From Flavobacteriales bacterium (GTDB lineage Bacteria; Bacteroidota; Bacteroidia; Flavobacteriales; Flavobacteriaceae): a stretch of DNA of 64,000 nucleotides. Made by a program: the position numbers and the translations under genes. Shown piece by piece: positions 6,178 to 59,357 of the stretch (the stretch's first letter is position 1; each line of letters begins with the position of its first letter). The stretch is from NCBI GenBank assembly GCA_026993355.1, contig JALWTX010000002.1, forward strand, positions 1 to 64,000, written 5' to 3'. The notes under the pieces are model-generated. The model saw only the letters and a list, made by a program, of their open reading frames with translations, did no database searches and was not told where the DNA came from.

Positions 6178-8739
6178 TTATCCACATTTACTATAACCGC
6201 AACTTTTACAGACCAAGCAACCTTCTTCATAAACCAAACCTTCGGGATCGTTACATTGAGGGCATTTTTTATCGTGTGGCGTGGCGCCATCAGGTATATA
6301 ACGTTTTAAGGTACGGGCCACACCTTTTTTCCAAGTGTTTATAAAATCGTCATACAGGTTGAGTCCTTCTATCAATTTGACCACTTCGTGCATGGGCATA
6401 CCATGCCGCAACACGCCGGAAATCAACTTGGCATAGTTCCAATATTCTTTGTTAAATGAACGTGAAAGTCCTTCAATAGTGACGCGATAGCCCTGCTTGT
6501 CAATAAACTGAAAATCGTAGCGGCTTTTGCCTTTTTCATCTTTATTTTTAATGACCCAACCTTTCTCCACCCAATCGGGCAGATTAAATACATCTTCCAT
6601 TTTACCGGTAAAAATTTCATAAGGTTTACCATCAATCATACCGACAACTGCCAACCAAGCTTCATCTTGATTCATAAATCGTACGACATCGGCTTCTAAT
6701 TTTTTAGGACGTTTAGAAGGAAATATATGCCTAGTTTCAGCGGTTTTTTCTTCTTTTTTGTCATCGGCAATCAAAATACCGCTACGCGAACCGTCTCGAT
6801 AAACCGTAATCCCTTTCAAACCTTTTTTCCATGCCTGAATATAAATGTCGCTAACTTTTTGCACGCTGACATCCGAAGGTAAATTTATAGTAGAGCTAAT
6901 CGAATGTGTGGTGTATTTCTGCACCAGTGCCTGCATTTCAATCCGTTTTTGCCAATCGATTTCGGGCGCTGTGGCACCGGCATACGGACTATCTGAAATT
7001 TTTTCTTTGCCTGATATCCGCATCCATTCTTTCAGTTTATGATGATACACGGTAAACTCTTCAAAAGCATCGCCCATATCATCAATAAAATCTATTTTGG
7101 CATTGGGATCATTGGCGTTGACTTTTCTTCGACGTTTATAACTCAACATAAAAACAGGCTCAATACCCGATGATGTTTGTGCCAACATACTGAGCGAGCC
7201 GGTAGGCGCTACGGTACTGATAGAAATATTGCGTCGCCCGTGTTGCATCATACGTTTGTATAATTCCGGAAACTCTTTTTCAAGCATCTGTACAAATTCG
7301 GATTGTTTTTCAATTTCAGGGTCAAAAATTTCAAATTTACCGCGTTCGATTGCCATATCGATACTGCTATCAAATTCGGCTTGCAGTTTGGTGCGCATTA
7401 TCTCATCTACGGCATGTAGAGCTTCATCGGTATCAAACTTAATTCCCAAAGCCGCAACGGCATCAGCCAAAGCTGTAAAACCCAGACCGGTACGTCGCCC
7501 TATCTTGCCGTTGTCTCTTAATAATTGCCAAGTTTCACGTTCTACTTGCTTAACGTTATCGGGTTCGGGGTCACTGTCAATTTTGGCTAAAATGCGATCG
7601 ACTGATTCCAATTCCAAATCGACCAAATCATCCATTAAACGTTGGGTTTCATAGACTGTTTCATAAAATTTTTCTTTGTTAAAATAAGCATCCGGCGTAA
7701 AAGGATTTTCTATAAAACTATACAAATTGACAGCAATCAACCTACAACTGTCGCCACCTTGCATGGCTATTTCACTACAAGGATTGGTCGATACGTTTTC
7801 AAATCCGGGATATAGTGACGAAGTGGAATATTTATGTTGTCTGTCCCAGTATATCATACCGGGTTCAGCAGTATTGTGAGCAGATTTGACTATAACATCC
7901 CACAATTTTCGAGCGTCTATTTGTTTGGTAACTTTCGGATTTTTGGCATCAATGGGCCAACGCAAAGTATATGGCTTATTATCAACGACTGCTTGCATAA
8001 ATTCGTCAGACAAACGAACGGAAATATTGGCACCGGTTACTTTGGTCAGGTCTTGTTTGACTGTTACAAAATCGAGTATATCCGGATGAGCGACATCCAT
8101 AGTCAGCATTAGGGCACCACGTCTGCCGTTTTGAGCGACTTCGCGCGTGGTAAAAGAAAAACGGTGCATAAAACTCACGGCGCCGGTGGTTGTGCGGGCA
8201 GCATTGGAAACATGGGCATCTTTGGGGCGTAATTTTGACAGGTCAGTGCCTACACCGCAACGTCGTTTAAAGAGTTGCACCAACTGTTGGTCAGTGTACA
8301 TTATGCCACCGTAAGAATCATAAGGTGCCGGTATCACCACACAATTAGATAAGGACGCAATCACTTGATCGTTGCCCAAACCAAACATGATACTACCCTG
8401 CGGAATAGTATATTTAAAACAGTCAAACATATCAAAAATCTTTTGTTCGGTTAGAGTGTCCCGTTTTTGACCGTATGCCGAAAGGTCTTTTGATTTAACT
8501 ACCGGATATTTTAGTTCTGTTTTGGCAAACATTTTAGCCATTCGCCGGTGCATATCAGCCGGTGTTTTTTCTAAAAAATTGCCTTGCGCATCTTTTAAAG
8601 CATATTTGTTCATCCAAGTAGTTACTGCCAGTTCATCACCCTTAAAATAGGATTTGGTAGCTTCAAAAACTTCATTAAAGGTATATTTTTGTTTGTCTGA
8701 AGTTTGTACAACTGAATAGCTTGAATTTGAAGGTATCAT
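6178..8739 (-). CDS. nrdJ: Adenosylcobalamin-dependent ribonucleoside-diphosphate reductase (class II)
   Basis: An 853-residue class II ribonucleotide reductase that makes deoxyribonucleotides with a radical generated from coenzyme B12, without a NrdB subunit or oxygen. Visible signatures are SNCVVIP (C133), the thiyl-radical motif NPCSEI at 319-324 (C321, E323) and the APTGSLSMLAQTSSGIEP loop. A TSCPD-like C-terminal extension ends in a zinc ribbon, CPQCNDPEG...CLVCKSCGYSKCG, which probably carries the redox-active cysteines. The length and the zinc ribbon are typical of the Bacteroidota/Thermotoga type. No cobalamin riboswitch or NrdR box was recognised upstream, but two inverted repeats lie in the divergent intergenic region. 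Confidence 0.95.
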   Translation of the reverse strand: MIPSNSSYSVVQTSDKQKYTFNEVFEATKSYFKGDELAVTTWMNKYALKDAQGNFLEKTPADMHRRMAKMFAKTELKYPVVKSKDLSAYGQKRDTLTEQKIFDMFDCFKYTIPQGSIMFGLGNDQVIASLSNCVVIPAPYDSYGGIMYTDQQLVQLFKRRCGVGTDLSKLRPKDAHVSNAARTTTGAVSFMHRFSFTTREVAQNGRRGALMLTMDVAHPDILDFVTVKQDLTKVTGANISVRLSDEFMQAVVDNKPYTLRWPIDAKNPKVTKQIDARKLWDVIVKSAHNTAEPGMIYWDRQHKYSTSSLYPGFENVSTNPCSEIAMQGGDSCRLIAVNLYSFIENPFTPDAYFNKEKFYETVYETQRLMDDLVDLELESVDRILAKIDSDPEPDNVKQVERETWQLLRDNGKIGRRTGLGFTALADAVAALGIKFDTDEALHAVDEIMRTKLQAEFDSSIDMAIERGKFEIFDPEIEKQSEFVQMLEKEFPELYKRMMQHGRRNISISTVAPTGSLSMLAQTSSGIEPVFMLSYKRRRKVNANDPNAKIDFIDDMGDAFEEFTVYHHKLKEWMRISGKEKISDSPYAGATAPEIDWQKRIEMQALVQKYTTHSISSTINLPSDVSVQKVSDIYIQAWKKGLKGITVYRDGSRSGILIADDKKEEKTAETRHIFPSKRPKKLEADVVRFMNQDEAWLAVVGMIDGKPYEIFTGKMEDVFNLPDWVEKGWVIKNKDEKGKSRYDFQFIDKQGYRVTIEGLSRSFNKEYWNYAKLISGVLRHGMPMHEVVKLIEGLNLYDDFINTWKKGVARTLKRYIPDGATPHDKKCPQCNDPEGLVYEEGCLVCKSCGYSKCG

Positions 8740-37242: not shown

Positions 37243-37274
37243 TTGACTTTAATAGTTTTTTTGTTGTATATTTG
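37243..37274 (+). promoter_or_regulatory. tRNA-fMet promoter
   Basis: TTGAC at 37243-37247 and TATATTTG at 37267-37274 match the Bacteroidota -33/-7 elements and lie 11 nt before the mature tRNA 5' end. Confidence 0.6.
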
Positions 37275-37285
37275 CACCACAATAT

Positions 37286-37358
<73 letters not shown>

Positions 37359-37364
37359 CTTTTC

Positions 37365-37402
37365 AAGGCTAAAATGCTGATTGTCAGCATTTTAGCCTTT
37401 TT
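37365..37402 (+). terminator. Terminator of the tRNA-fMet transcript
   Basis: A 16-bp perfect stem with left arm AAGGCTAAAATGCTGA, a 3-nt loop and a run of T, right after the tRNA. Confidence 0.92.
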
Positions 37403-37527
37403 GGTTTTAAAATTGAGTCAATCTGGCGCCAAATTTTGTTCCTTTTATTGTCCAATAAGGAATAAAAAAAATGCCTAATTCTAAAAATTTATTAGAGTTT
37501 AAGCCGGTATTTTTTTATTAAAATTTT

Positions 37528-37535
37528 TATCTTTG
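37528..37535 (+). promoter_or_regulatory. -7 promoter box of the twin structured RNA element
   Basis: TATCTTTG is an exact TAnnTTTG match ending 6 nt before the first element, so transcription would start at the element's 5' edge. No clear -33 TTG was found. Confidence 0.45.
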
Positions 37536-37541
37536 CAACTG

Positions 37542-37618
37542 AATGTCAGTTGTATGGAGCATGGTTTCATACGTAAAACATACAACGAATGCACTTCTGT
37601 ATGTTTCTGACTTTTTTT
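37542..37618 (+). ncRNA. Structured RNA element, copy 1, with terminal T run
   Basis: Predicted three-way junction. The outer stem is GTCAG (37545-37549)/CTGAC (37607-37611). Hairpin A is GTATGGA/TTCATAC with a 7-nt loop. Hairpin B is AAACATACA/TGTATGTTT with an inner GA/TC pair. A run of seven T follows the outer stem, as in an intrinsic terminator. The same fold is repeated in copy 2 with compensatory changes (see there). No protein is encoded. It may be a small RNA gene with its own promoter. The family is not recognised. Confidence 0.6.
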
Positions 37619-37627
37619 AAATTAATA

Positions 37628-37699
37628 AATCCGGTTGTATAGAGTAGGCGTTCTATATGTAAAACATACAACGGCAGCAGTCCTGTATGTTTCCGGTTT
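37628..37699 (+). ncRNA. Structured RNA element, copy 2
   Basis: The same architecture as copy 1: outer stem CCGG (37631-37634)/CCGG (37693-37696), hairpin A GTATAGA/TCTATAT with an 8-nt loop, hairpin B AAACATACA/TGTATGTTT with inner GG/CC. Relative to copy 1, pairs change together in the outer stem (GTCAG/CTGAC to CCGG/CCGG), in hairpin A (G:C to A:T and G:T to G:C) and in hairpin B (A:T to G:C). Junction GTAAAACATACAAC is identical in both copies. No separate -7 box precedes it. It ends 5 nt before the stop of the minus-strand DUF2442 gene. Confidence 0.6.
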
Positions 37700-37704
37700 A
37701 TTAT

Positions 37705-38046
37705 TCAGCTATTTTGAAGCAAATTCATTGTATAAATACTTTCTGCCGGAATATCCATTTGACCATCTTCCCAAGTCAAATGTCCAAATGCTATTGAAAC
37801 GTTTTTGAAACGTTTTTTATCTCTGAATTGCGTTGTCATCGGATTGTGAGATTTAAAAAGAAAATCTTTAAAATCAGCAATTCTTTTTTCTCCGTTGTCA
37901 AAAACAACTTTCAGTTTATAATCTGATAAATATTTTACTTTTGTTATTTTCTTAAAACTTATTTTTTCCTTTAATATAAAAAATTTTATCCAAGCATCAA
38001 TAATATTCTTCTTTTCTTGATTTATCAAAGCTTTTAAATTTTTCAT
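37705..38046 (-). CDS. DUF2442 domain protein
   Basis: A 113-residue protein from the ATG at 38046. The second half is DUF2442: ITKVKYLSDYKLKVVFDNGEKRIADFKDFLF, then FRDKKRFKNVSIAFGHLTWEDGQMDIPAESIY. The first 38 residues (MKNLKALINQEKKNIIDAWIKFFILKEKISFKK) look like the C-terminal part of DUF4160, a family whose gene usually lies immediately before DUF2442 in putative toxin-antitoxin-like pairs. The same frame stays open upstream of the ATG to 38175. So the gene is either a DUF4160-DUF2442 fusion that has lost its N-terminus, or a DUF2442 gene using an internal start. Confidence 0.6.
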   Translation of the reverse strand: MKNLKALINQEKKNIIDAWIKFFILKEKISFKKITKVKYLSDYKLKVVFDNGEKRIADFKDFLFKSHNPMTTQFRDKKRFKNVSIAFGHLTWEDGQMDIPAESIYTMNLLQNS

Positions 38047-38175
38047 TTGAGGTTTTGTTAATGGCTTTTTGCCGGCAACTACTTTATAAGCAATTCTAGC
38101 AATCTTTGAGTTTTTTATACAGGTTGAGATCCTATTTATTATGTGCTTGATTTTCAGGAGGAATAAAATATGAAT
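38047..38175 (-). pseudogene. Open-frame remnant upstream of DUF2442 (probable truncated DUF4160)
   Basis: Forty-three codons without a stop run in frame into the DUF2442 gene. The part nearest the ATG reads K-I-A-R-I-A-Y-K-V-V-A-G-K-K-P-L-T-K-P-Q, which continues the DUF4160-like C-terminal pattern (a G-x-x-P-x-x-Q segment before the L.A.I...DAW helix). There is no ATG, GTG or TTG in it, and TAA at 38176-38178 closes it. The characteristic HFH part of DUF4160 is missing, and the rpsA promoter lies just beyond. I infer a truncated gene; the family match is from pattern memory. Confidence 0.4.
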
Positions 38176-38225
38176 TTAATACAGAAAATAGTTTAATTAT
38201 ATATCTTTTGTAAAAAGAAATTTAT

Positions 38226-38233
38226 TAATTTTG
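38226..38233 (+). promoter_or_regulatory. rpsA -7 promoter box
   Basis: TAATTTTG is an exact TAnnTTTG match, with a TTTTG 15 nt upstream. Transcription would start at about 38238-38240, exactly at the first leader hairpin. Confidence 0.55.
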
Positions 38234-38237
38234 CAAA

Positions 38238-38358
38238 CGCTATCTGCAGGACGGAAAAGGATAGCGAATAGATTGATTTTCAAAGTTTAACAACTTTCAT
38301 TTTAATATGCCTGACTTTTCCGGTTAAAATGAAATACAAATATTAAAAAAATCAGCAT
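38238..38358 (+). promoter_or_regulatory. rpsA 5' leader with two hairpins and complementary loops
   Basis: Hairpin 1 has the 7-bp stem CGCTATC (38238-38244)/GATAGCG (38260-38266). Hairpin 2 has the 11-bp stem TTTCATTTTAA (38295-38305)/TTAAAATGAAA (38324-38334), 24 nt before the start codon. The loop of hairpin 1 contains CGGAAAAG (38252-38259) and the loop of hairpin 2 contains its exact complement CTTTTCCG (38315-38322), allowing an 8-bp kissing interaction. A small competing stem AAAGTT/AACTTT (38282-38297) overlaps the base of hairpin 2. Autoregulation by S1 would be a natural role, since S1 genes are leader-regulated in other bacteria; this is inferred. Confidence 0.55.
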
Positions 38359-40182
38359 ATGTCTGAAGAACAAAAAAAACAAGAAGCCGCAGCGCAAGAG
38401 AAAGCGACTGAGGTGCAAGCACAAGCGGAAGAAGTAAAAGAAAAAGATCCGCAACAATTTTTAGAAGACTTTAATTGGGAAGCCTATGAAGAAGGAATTG
38501 AACCCATTAAAGATGACAAACTCGTAGAGTTTGAAAAATTGGTTGAAGAAAAAATTAAAGTGCTTGACGAAAATGAAGTAATTGAAGGCACGGTGACCGC
38601 AATTACTGACCGCGATGTTATCGTTGATATCAATTCAAAATCTGAAGGTGTTTTACCGCGTAACGAGTTTCGTTACAATCCGGATTTGAAAGTTGGTGAC
38701 AAGGTTGAGGTAATGGTGGTGCGTAAAGAAGATAAAAACGGCCAATTGGTTTTATCTCATAAGCGCGCACGCCAATTAAAAGCTTGGGAACGTGTAAACG
38801 AAGCCCTTGAAAAAGATGAAATTGTAAAAGGTTATGTCAAAGCTCGTACCAAAGGCGGTATGATTGTCGATGTATTTGGTATTGAAGCTTTCTTACCCGG
38901 TTCACAAATTGATGTTAAACCTATCAGAGATTATGATCAATATGTGGGAAAAACCATGGAATTCAAAATTGTTAAAATTAATCCTGAATTTAAAAACGTG
39001 GTTGTTTCACACAAAGCACTTATTGAAGCTGACTTAGAAGAACAAAAACGCGAAATCATTTCGCAACTTGAAAAAGGTCAAGTGATTGAAGGCGTGGTGA
39101 AAAATATCACTTCTTATGGCGTATTTGTTGACTTAGGTGGTATTGATGGATTAATCCACATTACAGATTTAGCATGGAAACGCATTAATCACCCCAGTGA
39201 AGTGGTTAATTTAGATGACACTTTAAAAGTGGTTATCCTTGACTTTGATGAGAAAAAATCAAGAATTCAACTTGGTTTGAAACAATTAGAGCCGCATCCT
39301 TGGGATAATTTAGACGAAAATCTTAAAGTAGGCGATAAAGTTAAAGGTAAAGTTTCTGTAATTGCTGACTATGGTGCTTTTGTTGAGGTAGAACCGGGCG
39401 TTGAAGGTTTGATTCACGTTTCCGAAATGTCTTGGAGTACACATTTACGTTCTGCTCAAGATTTTGTAAAAGAAGGTGAAGAAGTAGAGGCTGTTGTCTT
39501 ATCTTTGGACCGCGACGAACGTAAAATGTCACTGGGAATGAAGCAGTTAACACCTGATCCTTGGGCTGATATCGAGAAAAAATATCCTGTAGGATCTAAA
39601 CACAAAGGAGTGGTGCGTAACTTTACCAACTTTGGGGCTTTTGTCGAGTTAGAAGAAGGCGTTGACGGTTTGATTTATATCTCTGATTTAACTTGGAACA
39701 AACGGGTTAAACATCCGTCAGATGTTTTAAATATTGGAGACGAAGTAGAAGTCATCGTTTTAGATGTTGACAAAGAAGGGCGTAAATTAAGTTTAGGTCT
39801 TAAACAATTACAAGAAAATGTTTGGGATACTTATGCCGATAAATATGGTGTTGGTACCGAACATGAAGGCGAAGTAAAAGAAGCTGCCGGTAAAGGTGCT
39901 ACTATTTTGTTGGATGGTGAAGTAGAAGCGTTTGCACCGGGCCGTTTAATGATGAAAGAAGATGGCACGAAACTTAAAAAAGGGGAAAAAGCCAAATTTA
40001 AAGTGATTGAATTTGACAAGGACGCCCAAAAAATAGTGGTTTCCCACACCGCTACTTATAAAGAAGAAGAAGCCAGAAATGTGCGCGAAAACAAAGCCAA
40101 AATGGAGAGTGAACAAAAAGCAACTTTAGGTGATTTGGATGCTTTGGCACAATTGAAAAAAGATATGGAAAAAGGTAAATAA
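38359..40182 (+). CDS. rpsA: 30S ribosomal protein S1
   Basis: A 607-residue protein with six S1-type OB-fold repeats after an acidic, lysine/glutamate-rich N-terminus. Clear repeats include EGTVTAITDRDVIVDINSKSEGVLPRNEF, GVVKNITSYGVFVDLGGIDGLIHITDLAW, GKVSVIADYGAFVEVEPGVEGLIHVSEMSW and GVVRNFTNFGAFVELEEGVDGLIYISDLTW. It delivers mRNA to the ribosome, which matters in a lineage that hardly uses Shine-Dalgarno pairing. Flanked by a structured leader and a strong terminator. Confidence 0.97.
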   Translation: MSEEQKKQEAAAQEKATEVQAQAEEVKEKDPQQFLEDFNWEAYEEGIEPIKDDKLVEFEKLVEEKIKVLDENEVIEGTVTAITDRDVIVDINSKSEGVLPRNEFRYNPDLKVGDKVEVMVVRKEDKNGQLVLSHKRARQLKAWERVNEALEKDEIVKGYVKARTKGGMIVDVFGIEAFLPGSQIDVKPIRDYDQYVGKTMEFKIVKINPEFKNVVVSHKALIEADLEEQKREIISQLEKGQVIEGVVKNITSYGVFVDLGGIDGLIHITDLAWKRINHPSEVVNLDDTLKVVILDFDEKKSRIQLGLKQLEPHPWDNLDENLKVGDKVKGKVSVIADYGAFVEVEPGVEGLIHVSEMSWSTHLRSAQDFVKEGEEVEAVVLSLDRDERKMSLGMKQLTPDPWADIEKKYPVGSKHKGVVRNFTNFGAFVELEEGVDGLIYISDLTWNKRVKHPSDVLNIGDEVEVIVLDVDKEGRKLSLGLKQLQENVWDTYADKYGVGTEHEGEVKEAAGKGATILLDGEVEAFAPGRLMMKEDGTKLKKGEKAKFKVIEFDKDAQKIVVSHTATYKEEEARNVRENKAKMESEQKATLGDLDALAQLKKDMEKGK

Positions 40183-58019: not shown

Positions 58020-59357
58020 GTGCGAAACATTATTAAGATGATAAAGAAACAAAGGACAATAAATAATGGACAGTTGACAATGGATAATGAACAATTGCCG
58101 AAAGGCGATGCTCTGAGTTTACCGAAGGGCGATGTCCTGAGCTTGCCGAAGGGTTGGGAGGTGAAAAAGTTGGGGGAAGTTTGTGAAGTTAGTGCTGGAA
58201 ATTCTGCTCCACAAAAAAAAGAATTATTTATTAATGGAACAAATCCTTTTATTAGAACAGCTGACGTAGGAAAAATAAAAAAAGGAATACTAATTTCTTG
58301 TACAGATTATCTCAATGAAGAAGGGATAAGGAAACTTAGGTTATTTAAGAAGGGAACTATACTTTTCCCTAAAAGCGGAGCTTCAACATTCCTAAATCAT
58401 AGAGTTATGATGGGAATTGATGGTTATGTAGCAAGTCATTTATCCACGATAAAAGCGGGTGAAAGTTGCGATGATAAATTTCTTTTTTATTATTTGATTA
58501 CTATTGATGCAAAAGATTTAATGCAAAATATTGCCTACCCATCATTAAAGTTGTCTGATATAAAACAAATCCAAATCCCCCTCCCCCCACTACCCGAACA
58601 AAAACGCATAGTTTCCATACTCGACCGTGCTTTTAAAGCCATAGACCAAGCCAAAGCCAATGCCGAACAAAACCTTAATAATGCGAAGGAAATTTTTCAA
58701 TCAAAATTGCAAGCAATTTTTGATAATGGAAAATTGAAAATTGAAAATGGAGAATGGGTGGAGAGGAAGTTTTTAGATATCGTAGATTATTCAAGAAAAC
58801 CAAGAGGATTAATTCTAAATAACCCTATACCTTTTATCCCTATGAATTATGTTCCATTGGATAAAAAATATATAAAAATCAACGAATATCGAGAAAAAGT
58901 GTCAAGTGGAACTTTTATAAAAAAGGGCGATTTGTTGCTTGCTAAAATCACCCCCTCATTTGAAAATGGGAAACAAGGTATTGTTGACATACAAGAAAAA
59001 TATGGATATGCAACAACAGAAGTAATTCCATTTCAAGGTAAAAATGAAGTTGTAGAGACAGAGTATTTATTCTATTTTCTAAAAAGTAGTATAAGAAAGC
59101 ATTTGGAAAATAAAATGGAAGGTGCAACAGGAAGACAACGGTTACCACAAAAAATATTAAATGAAATATTAGTCCCATTCCCAAAATCCATAGAAACCCA
59201 AAAAAAAATCGTCCAACAATTAGATGCTTTACAAGCGGAAACCAAAAAACTGGAAGCAATTTATCAACAAAAAATTAGTAATTTAGAGGAGTTGAAAAAA
59301 AGTGTGTTGCAGAAGGCGTTTAATGGAGAGTTGACAGAAAATATGAAAAACAAATGA
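58020..59357 (+). CDS. hsdS: Type I restriction-modification system specificity subunit
   Basis: A 445-residue HsdS with two target-recognition domains: TRD1 from LPKGWEVKKLGEVCEVSAGNSAPQ and TRD2 from WVERKFLDIVDYSRKPRG. Each is followed by a conserved helix (PLPPLPEQKRIVSILDRAFKAIDQAKANAEQNLNNAKEIFQSKL and ETQKKIVQQLDALQAETKKLEAIYQQKISNLEELKKSVLQKAFNGEL). It sets the DNA sequence recognised. The GTG start at 58020 lies in the repeat spacer; ATG at 58038 and 58080 are alternatives. The N-terminal 24-nt tandem repeat (58095-58154) adds non-conserved residues. Its end overlaps the Schlafen-like gene by 4 nt (ATGA). Confidence 0.93.
   Translation: MRNIIKMIKKQRTINNGQLTMDNEQLPKGDALSLPKGDVLSLPKGWEVKKLGEVCEVSAGNSAPQKKELFINGTNPFIRTADVGKIKKGILISCTDYLNEEGIRKLRLFKKGTILFPKSGASTFLNHRVMMGIDGYVASHLSTIKAGESCDDKFLFYYLITIDAKDLMQNIAYPSLKLSDIKQIQIPLPPLPEQKRIVSILDRAFKAIDQAKANAEQNLNNAKEIFQSKLQAIFDNGKLKIENGEWVERKFLDIVDYSRKPRGLILNNPIPFIPMNYVPLDKKYIKINEYREKVSSGTFIKKGDLLLAKITPSFENGKQGIVDIQEKYGYATTEVIPFQGKNEVVETEYLFYFLKSSIRKHLENKMEGATGRQRLPQKILNEILVPFPKSIETQKKIVQQLDALQAETKKLEAIYQQKISNLEELKKSVLQKAFNGELTENMKNK
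58095..58154 (+). repeat. 24-nt tandem repeat inside the 5' end of hsdS
   Basis: Two and a half copies of a 24-nt unit (58095-58118, 58119-58142, 58143-58154) encode L-P-K-G-D-A-L-S, L-P-K-G-D-V-L-S and L-P-K-G. The last copy merges with the normal L-P-K-G-W start of the first recognition domain. The unit is a multiple of 3, so copy-number changes keep the frame. Confidence 0.85.

What the first reader, a model, noticed from the sequence alone, without database searches (positions are those of the whole stretch)
37542..37699. Twin structured RNA elements with compensatory base changes downstream of tRNA-fMet
Two copies of a roughly 70-nt element fold into the same three-way junction. The outer stem, hairpin A and the inner part of hairpin B each differ between copies in ways that keep pairing, while a junction segment (GTAAAACATACAAC) and part of a loop stay identical. 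The first copy has its own exact -7 box at the right distance and ends in seven T. That pattern indicates selected RNA structure, not simple repeat DNA. I do not recognise the family.
Basis: seen in the sequence. Interest (0 to 1): 0.75.

Follow-up and report, generated by a model that had tools for sequence, protein, structure and literature searches.

The report
Tandem structured RNA beside Fic module
Two back-to-back small RNA elements behind an initiator-tRNA gene belong to a structured RNA family not in Rfam that, in one genus of flavobacteria, travels with a Fic-type toxin-like gene and may be that module's own regulatory RNA.

Summary
Two elements (37545-37611, 37631-37696, + strand) fold into the same three-way junction and differ at four pairs by both-side changes that keep pairing.

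Homologues exist: 10 copies in 5 of 13 genus genomes, none further at E<=0.001 in samples of 395 order and 395 phylum genomes. Pairing holds in 98% of cells, with both-side changes in 8 of 26 pairs. No Rfam match.

The array marks an accessory module: RNA array, convergent DUF2442 gene, class II Fic gene. Close Fic occurs in 4 of 13 genomes and DUF2442 in 4 of 13, always with the RNA; the window lacks Fic. In G012, PBECR1 replaces DUF2442 and the site differs, yet RNA and Fic stay about 1 kb apart. An exact TAnnTTTG box precedes each array; the last copy ends 6-14 nt from the facing stop codon. Module relationships contradict rpsA, suggesting horizontal exchange.

Best reading: an accessory sibling-sRNA family, possibly regulating its Fic module. 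No transcript or function has been shown.

The parts
37286..37359 (+). tRNA-Met(CAT), by its features an initiator tRNA; the module stands directly behind it
   Evidence: ARAGORN, Rfam; the initiator reading rests on recalled features (GGG/CCC anticodon stem, unpaired 1-72)
37365..37402 (+). terminator-like hairpin (37365-37399) with T run after the tRNA, separating it from the array
   Evidence: 1 found in 37250-38250, mean 0.3 in shuffles
37528..37535 (+). TATCTTTG, exact Bacteroidota -7 box (TAnnTTTG) of copy 1; start site inferred near 37540-37543
   Evidence: a box starts 9-15 nt before the modelled element in 5 of 5 arrays; the motif occurs 0.93 times per kb and strand in the window
37545..37611 (+). 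structured RNA copy 1: outer stem 37545-37549/37607-37611, hairpin A 37551-37560/37564-37573, hairpin B 37576-37588/37596-37606
37612..37618 (+). run of seven T, possible 3' end of copy 1
   Evidence: not called a terminator by the scan
37631..37696 (+). structured RNA copy 2 (the conserved 'last' type): outer stem 37631-37634/37693-37696, hairpin A 37636-37645/37650-37659, hairpin B 37662-37674/37682-37692
   Evidence: last copies 93-99% identical in four genomes
37705..38046 (-). convergent DUF2442 gene, its stop codon 6 nt beyond the modelled end (37698) of copy 2; the close Fic gene that precedes it in three relatives is absent from this genome

Best explanation
The two elements are tandem sibling genes of a small structured RNA belonging to a horizontally exchanged accessory module: a Fic gene and then a small partner gene on one strand, facing 1-3 copies of the RNA on the other. 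Shown by sequence: a selected three-way-junction RNA on the + strand, linkage to Fic/DUF2442, convergent layout with 3' ends 6-14 nt apart. Inferred: the RNA is made from its own sigma-ABfr-type promoter, copy by copy or as a short tandem transcript, and acts on the module itself, keeping the AMPylating Fic enzyme or its mRNA in check, either by binding the protein as an RNA antitoxin does or by overlapping the 3' end of the operon's mRNA. The window holds a reduced version with RNA and DUF2442 but no Fic. Confidence by step: selected structured RNA 0.93; part of a mobile module with Fic 0.85; regulates that module about 0.4; which of the two modes is open.
For: Covariation and G-U bias. 10 copies in 5 of 13 genus genomes. 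Close Fic (E 7.8e-123 or better) in 4 of 13, all RNA-positive; DUF2442 in 4 of 13, all RNA-positive; Fisher p 0.007 each, not corrected for relatedness. RNA is the only one of the three present in all five loci. In G012 the partner gene is PBECR1 instead of DUF2442 and the chromosomal site differs, yet RNA and Fic stay within about 1 kb. Last copy 6, 10, 10, 10, 14 nt from the convergent stop codon. -7 box in 5 of 5 arrays. Fic dN/dS 0.08-0.11, catalytic HPF[A/S]DGNGR and SSMIEG invariant in 4 of 4. Last RNA copy 94% identical between window and G006 where the two spacers are 62 and 68%. Exchange: by rpsA G001, G006 and G007 group (89-93%) and the window is apart (85-86%), but in the module window and G007 are closest (first RNA copy 94% against 80-84% for G007 with G001/G006; DUF2442 94% against 84-89%). 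No genome of 13 has close Fic without the RNA.
Against: No transcript data. Class II Fic enzymes carry their own inhibitory helix, so an outside antitoxin is not needed. RNA loops show no consistent pairing to the start regions of Fic, DUF2442 or PBECR1: 3 of 57 loop-gene tests reach p<=0.05, and one of these (p=0.00) is the 89-aa ORF whose start region overlaps the RNA's own complement. First copies are less conserved than last copies (80-84% window to G001/G006). The 13 Fic homologues of 33-47% identity outside the genus have no DUF2442 by tblastn (the control finds the known copies) and no convincing RNA (best 15.4 bits) within the stretches held, about 1.5 kb on each side or less. Five positive genomes of one genus are not independent, and 2 of the 8 negative ones are under 90% complete; co-occurrence could be hitch-hiking on one island.
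Confidence: 0.45

Rival explanations
1. Trans-acting sibling sRNAs carried as cargo: the RNA regulates host or phage mRNAs through its variable apical loops, and sits beside Fic only because both are passengers of the same island.
For: Loops vary between sibling copies while stems are kept; no consistent pairing to module mRNAs; the window genome has the RNA without Fic; sibling sRNAs are a known theme (PMC4211561, abstract), and an island-encoded sRNA acting in island transfer is known (PMC9299015, abstract).
Against: Linkage survives a change of chromosomal place and of the gene in between (G012); in the 13 genus genomes no RNA copy lies without Fic or DUF2442 near it.
Confidence: 0.35
2. 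The element works as DNA or as a signal in cis: a folded recombination site, or a two-way terminator between convergent genes.
For: Both strands fold; T run of seven after copy 1; convergent neighbours with 3' ends 6-14 nt away; a tyrosine integrase gene starts about 0.7 kb from the G012 copy; the module sits directly behind tRNA-fMet in the window, G001 and G006.
Against: 29 G-U against 2 A-C cells points to a + strand RNA; a promoter box before the first copy in 5 of 5 arrays; up to three copies are not needed for termination; 7 of 10 copies lack a run of five or more T in the 16 nt behind them, and the terminator scan of the window calls neither copy. No integrase was recognised by eye among the ORFs listed near the other four arrays, without a family search.
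Confidence: 0.13
3. Decaying repeat DNA (REP/MITE-like) whose apparent compensation is chance.
For: Tandem copies, AT-rich, in an exchanged stretch.
Against: Only two copies in the own genome; covariation score, paired cells and both-side changes beyond all 500 shuffles and all slid registers; last copy conserved far above spacers.
Confidence: 0.03
4. Cis-acting leader (riboswitch or attenuator) of a downstream gene.
For: Compact three-way junction.
Against: The next long same-strand gene in the window is rpsA at 38359, beyond an opposing gene; the gene next downstream of the array is convergent in all five loci.
Confidence: 0.02

Closest known systems
AbiF system with its ncRNA (RCd22, two abiF motifs; PMC12373285, abstract read)
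   Same: A short structured RNA with a doubled motif linked to a toxic defence protein on a mobile element; there the RNA neutralises the protein by binding.
   Different: Protein here is Fic (Pfam PF02661), not Abi_2; no match to any Rfam family; RNA lies convergent at the 3' end of the operon.
Type III toxin-antitoxin (ToxIN; PMC8860590, abstract read)
   Same: Tandem RNA units beside a toxin-like gene.
   Different: Toxin there is an endoribonuclease and the RNA units form pseudoknots; here a Fic enzyme and ~70-nt three-way junctions, on the opposite strand.
Sofic-AS1 anti-phage Fic system (PMC12249575, abstract read)
   Same: Fic protein (PADLOC SoFic model hit, E 5.7e-21, residues 27-232) followed by a small gene.
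   Different: AS1 is a protein antitoxin; no RNA is mentioned in the abstract; the small partner here is DUF2442 or PBECR1.
DhiTA (DUF4160/DUF2442) toxin-antitoxin (PMC8198452, passages; a DUF4160/DUF2442 pair on Thermus plasmids, PMC12724237, passage)
   Same: Same small DUF2442 family, encoded second in the operon.
   Different: The first gene there is DUF4160; here Fic. The window gene shows only a sub-threshold DUF4160 trace (E 0.097).
Sibling sRNAs such as PrrF and Qrr (PMC4211561, abstract and section list) and NgncR_162/163 (search listing)
   Same: Several related copies in one genome.
   Different: Those named are regulators outside toxin-like modules, by recall; this one is an accessory-module RNA.

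Membership tests
Any Rfam 15 family | score above the gathering cut-off of one of 4227 models | tested here: not met
   (window copies); the four sub-threshold hits score 11.9-17.2 bits against cut-offs of 35.6-70
Type III toxin-antitoxin | endoribonuclease toxin of the ToxN/CptN/TenpN kind | tested here: not met
   Pfam hits of the module proteins are Fic, DUF2442, PBECR1; PBECR1 is itself a nuclease family but was found in G012 only
Type III toxin-antitoxin | RNA repeats in front of the toxin on the same strand (recalled) | tested here: not met
   array convergent to the facing gene in all five loci
Type III toxin-antitoxin | RNA inhibits the toxin protein directly | not testable with these tools
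   needs co-expression and binding assays
AbiF ncRNA system | Abi_2-family protein beside the RNA | tested here: not met
   no Abi_2 hit among the module proteins scanned
Tandem sibling sRNA | two or more closely related structured copies | tested here: met
   two or three copies in 4 of 5 arrays; G012 has one
Tandem sibling sRNA | a separate transcript from an own promoter | tested here: inconclusive
   exact -7 box before the first copy in 5 of 5 arrays, none before the 4 later copies checked of 5; no transcript data
REP/BIME-like repeat | many dispersed genomic copies | tested here: not met
   two copies only in G000
Class II Fic protein (linked gene) | HPFx[D/E]GNGR core plus N-terminal (S/T)xxxE(G/N) helix | tested here: met
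   HPF[A/S]DGNGR and SSMIEG invariant in 4 of 4; core motif as in the abstract of PMC7479194 (listing), class definition from PMC5651007 passages
Integron attC-like site | folded single-stranded DNA recombined by an integrase | not testable with these tools
   both strands fold; G-U bias argues against

The most novel reading that the evidence does not exclude
A Fic (AMPylating) toxin-like enzyme whose module carries its own tandem three-way-junction RNA as regulator: an RNA-controlled Fic system, analogous to AbiF or type III toxin-antitoxin but with an unrelated enzyme and an unrelated RNA, exchanged between genomes at the initiator-tRNA gene.
Probability: 0.2. Interest if true: 0.75.

Novelty: new member of a known kind. 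Interest (0 to 1): 0.52.

Why it matters
It adds a structured RNA family, supported by covariation and absent from Rfam, in flavobacteria, and places it inside a Fic/DUF2442 accessory module. If the RNA controls the Fic enzyme, it would be an RNA-based control of an AMPylating toxin-like protein; five searches of the held library (2 of 2, 11 of 11, 10 of 23, 8 of 8 and 3 of 3 papers listed) showed none that describes one, judged from titles and abstract starts. The question can be settled with a two-plasmid experiment in a laboratory strain.

Tried and rejected
Chance hits: the 15-mer GTAAAACATACAACG occurs in 102 stretches of IMG/VR, one match each in the rows printed; I take this as chance level, without an expected value and without checking the loci one by one. 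Three longer patterns found nothing there. Distant blastn gave 2 phage and 4 plasmid records with partial hits covering 8% and 14-16% of the query; not inspected further.

Dropped rows: one search matched 7 of 60 genomes at E<=0.01. Two, G008 (31 query bases) and G058 (24 query bases), are short matches at E 0.006-0.008; their surroundings show no such element, and I dropped them. One search lists 20 rows: 10 copies, 5 antisense echoes of copies, 5 weak hits (E 0.006-0.96). One search lists 7 weak hits (E 0.004-0.1). All 12 weak hits were printed and 10 of the 12 aligned; I judged them chance by eye (broken or missing helices). Order and phylum samples (395 each, partly the same genomes) gave only the own genome at E<=0.001, with strict filters that can lose distant members.

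RAYT idea: the genome contigs pattern hit 8 stretches, four of them the known genus copies. L158 and L159 read like the coding start of a REP-associated transposase (recognised from memory, not tested); L160 and L164 look like other sequence. L164 scores 16.0 and L159 14.3 bits against 82-94 for true copies, L158 and L160 give no hit at E<=1. Rejected as chance.

Other ideas: the alternative pairing GTTGTAT/ATACAAC is not kept in G012 or in the second G007 copy, and a loop-loop contact possible in copy 1 is not kept in several others (both by eye). Peptide coding: no frame on either strand is open in all 10 copies, though two antisense frames are open in 9 of 10. Loop-to-start pairing: nothing consistent. 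Close Fic in the family: 1 of 299 genomes at E<=1e-50, the genus member G012. Fic in IMG/VR: no relative confirmed.

Full report
OBSERVATION. The window carries a tRNA-Met(CAT) gene at 37286-37359, a terminator-like hairpin behind it (37365-37399), then two + strand elements at 37545-37611 and 37631-37696. Each folds into a three-way junction: outer stem, hairpin A, hairpin B (500-shuffle repeat z -2.8 and -2.2). Of 26 modelled pairs, 8 differ between the two copies: 4 by changes on both sides that keep pairing, 3 on one side by G-U, 1 broken. The -7 box TATCTTTG and the seven T are as described. No Rfam family matches at gathering level in the window except tRNA, nor credibly at E<=10 in the stretch itself.

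HOMOLOGUES. Searching 60 relatives with the DNA gave 7 matching genomes: the own one, four of the same genus with full elements (G007 2 copies, G006 3, G001 2, G012 1; copy numbers) and two short chance-like matches (G008, G058) that I dropped. With the two window copies this makes 10. A model from these 10 (R1) finds these 10 at 82-94 bits in the 13 genomes of the genus, 5 of 13 carrying them (the tool's tally of 7 includes two genomes with weak hits only); nothing else there exceeds 30 bits. Samples of 199 family, 395 order and 395 phylum genomes (overlapping) gave no further credible member. The family is real but narrow, as far as these samples reach.

SELECTED RNA. On the 10-row alignment 98.1% of 260 cells pair, 8 pairs show both-side changes, the covariation score is 0.266 against 0.160 +/- 0.016, and no shuffle of 500 reaches these values; the count of further pair types is not above shuffles (14 against 14.3). 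Slid registers give 0-1 cells with both-side changes. The tool's own caution applies: related sequences inflate the shuffle test, and the structure was derived from these sequences. G-U cells number 29, A-C cells 2, which marks the + strand as the RNA; 18 of the 29 come from two nearly constant pairs. The last copy, nearest the convergent gene, is 93-99% identical in four genomes; spacers between window and G006 or G001 are 56-68% identical; first copies are less conserved than last ones (80-84% between window and G006 or G001). No reading frame is open in all 10 copies.

ANATOMY. In 5 of 5 arrays an exact TAnnTTTG box starts 9-15 nt before the modelled element (G012 has a second one at 17); the 4 later copies checked, of 5, have none in 55 nt. 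The motif occurs 0.93 times per kb and strand in the window. TAnnTTTG as the -7 consensus of Bacteroidota, confirmed in F. johnsoniae, is stated in PMC7366714 (passages). The last copy ends 6 (window), 10, 10, 10 and 14 nt (G012) from the stop codon of a gene on the other strand. That gene is DUF2442 in four loci and PBECR1, a phage-type nuclease family, in G012. In G001, G006 and G007 a Fic gene (PF02661, E 1e-12 for G006) precedes DUF2442 on the same strand; in G012 Fic precedes PBECR1.

LINKAGE. The close Fic protein occurs in 4 of 13 genus genomes, all RNA-positive; the other Fic hits, in 8 genomes, are at 28-33% identity. DUF2442 occurs in 4 of 13, all RNA-positive, and not in G012. Fisher p is 0.007 for each, without correction for relatedness; of the 8 negative genomes, G005 (87%) and G010 (68%) are less than 90% complete. 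The RNA is the only one of the three found in all five. The four Fic proteins keep HPF[A/S]DGNGR and SSMIEG, so by the definition quoted in PMC5651007 they are class II, and evolve with dN/dS 0.08-0.11, with dS near saturation against G012; DUF2442 0.16-0.29. PADLOC's SoFic model matches at E 5.7e-21; the nearest solved structure by sequence is a FICD homologue at E 8.8e-7.

MOBILITY. tRNA-fMet has one good copy per genome (13 of 13; G007 has a second match, 80% identical, on another contig), yet lies in at least four chromosomal settings: between symporter and rpsA (window, G009; inverted in G011; G004 beside the symporter at a contig end), macB-like and OmpA-like (G003, G008, G010, G002), mlaD-like and folC-like (G001, G006), a further one in G012, and beside rpsA with another neighbour in G005. 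Gene names other than rpsA and the symporter are by recognition, not by a family search. The module stands directly behind the tRNA in the window, G001 and G006, and very probably in G007, whose tRNA contig ends in the terminator hairpin with which the array contig begins and whose array contig continues into the OmpA-like gene. Module and core gene disagree: by rpsA, G001, G006 and G007 are 89-93% identical and the window is 85-86% from each, whereas the first RNA copy of the window is 94% identical to that of G007 but G007's is only 80 and 84% identical to those of G001 and G006, and DUF2442 behaves alike (94% against 84 and 89%); Fic of G001 is closer to G007 (91%) than to G006 (83%). This points to exchange among genomes, though rpsA is one gene. 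In G012 the module sits elsewhere, next to a tyrosine integrase gene cut by the contig end.

FUNCTION. Evidence for control of the module is positional: linkage, facing 3' ends, RNA present without Fic once but no close Fic without RNA. It parallels AbiF, where a two-motif RNA neutralises the linked toxin (PMC12373285, abstract), and Sofic, where a small downstream gene encodes the antitoxin (PMC12249575, abstract). DUF2442 is the antitoxin of DhiTA (PMC8198452, passages). Against it: class II Fic proteins are self-inhibited; no consistent loop pairing to module start regions was found (3 of 57 tests at p<=0.05, one of them trivial); 13 Fic homologues outside the genus have no DUF2442 and no convincing RNA within the stretches held. 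I give module control about 0.4 and the independent cargo-sRNA rival about 0.35. No transcript has been seen.

NOVELTY. A new, Rfam-unmatched RNA family of a known kind (accessory, tandem, structured sRNA). Literature searches for Fic with RNA control, Sofic (10 of 23 papers listed) and class II Fic listed no paper that by title or abstract start describes a structured RNA partner; only listings were read except where passages or abstracts are named above.

Noticed in passing
window 37286-37359 and L165-L177: The single tRNA-fMet gene sits in at least four different chromosomal settings among 13 genomes (species) of one genus, once in inverted orientation (G011).
   Followed up: partly
window 37950-38130: The DUF2442 frame extends upstream into a stretch with a sub-threshold DUF4160 trace (E 0.097), perhaps the remnant of a DUF4160/DUF2442 pair fused to the module.
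   Followed up: partly
L191 16539-18632: In G012 the RNA lies between a PBECR1 nuclease gene and an 89-aa ORF, with a tyrosine integrase gene cut off by the contig end about 0.7 kb away.
   Followed up: partly
L158 about 7262-7298, L159 about 381-417: Coding starts of what look like REP-associated (RAYT) transposases, by recognition, match the hairpin B pattern of this RNA; read as chance.
   Followed up: partly
L181, L182, L192: The module is a mosaic: Fic of G001 is closest to G007 but its first RNA copy is closest to G006, and the window's module is closest to G007 although rpsA is not.
   Followed up: yes
G007 contig C215 (L178): A second, 80% identical tRNA-fMet match beside a 507-aa frame that reads like a serine recombinase (by recognition); possibly contamination of the MAG.
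   Followed up: no
L212: A distant Fic homologue outside the genus carries one in-frame TAA in the matched stretch, apparently a broken copy.
   Followed up: no
window 58048-58153: Two short adjoining tandem repeats (periods 21 and 24), unrelated to the finding.
   Followed up: no
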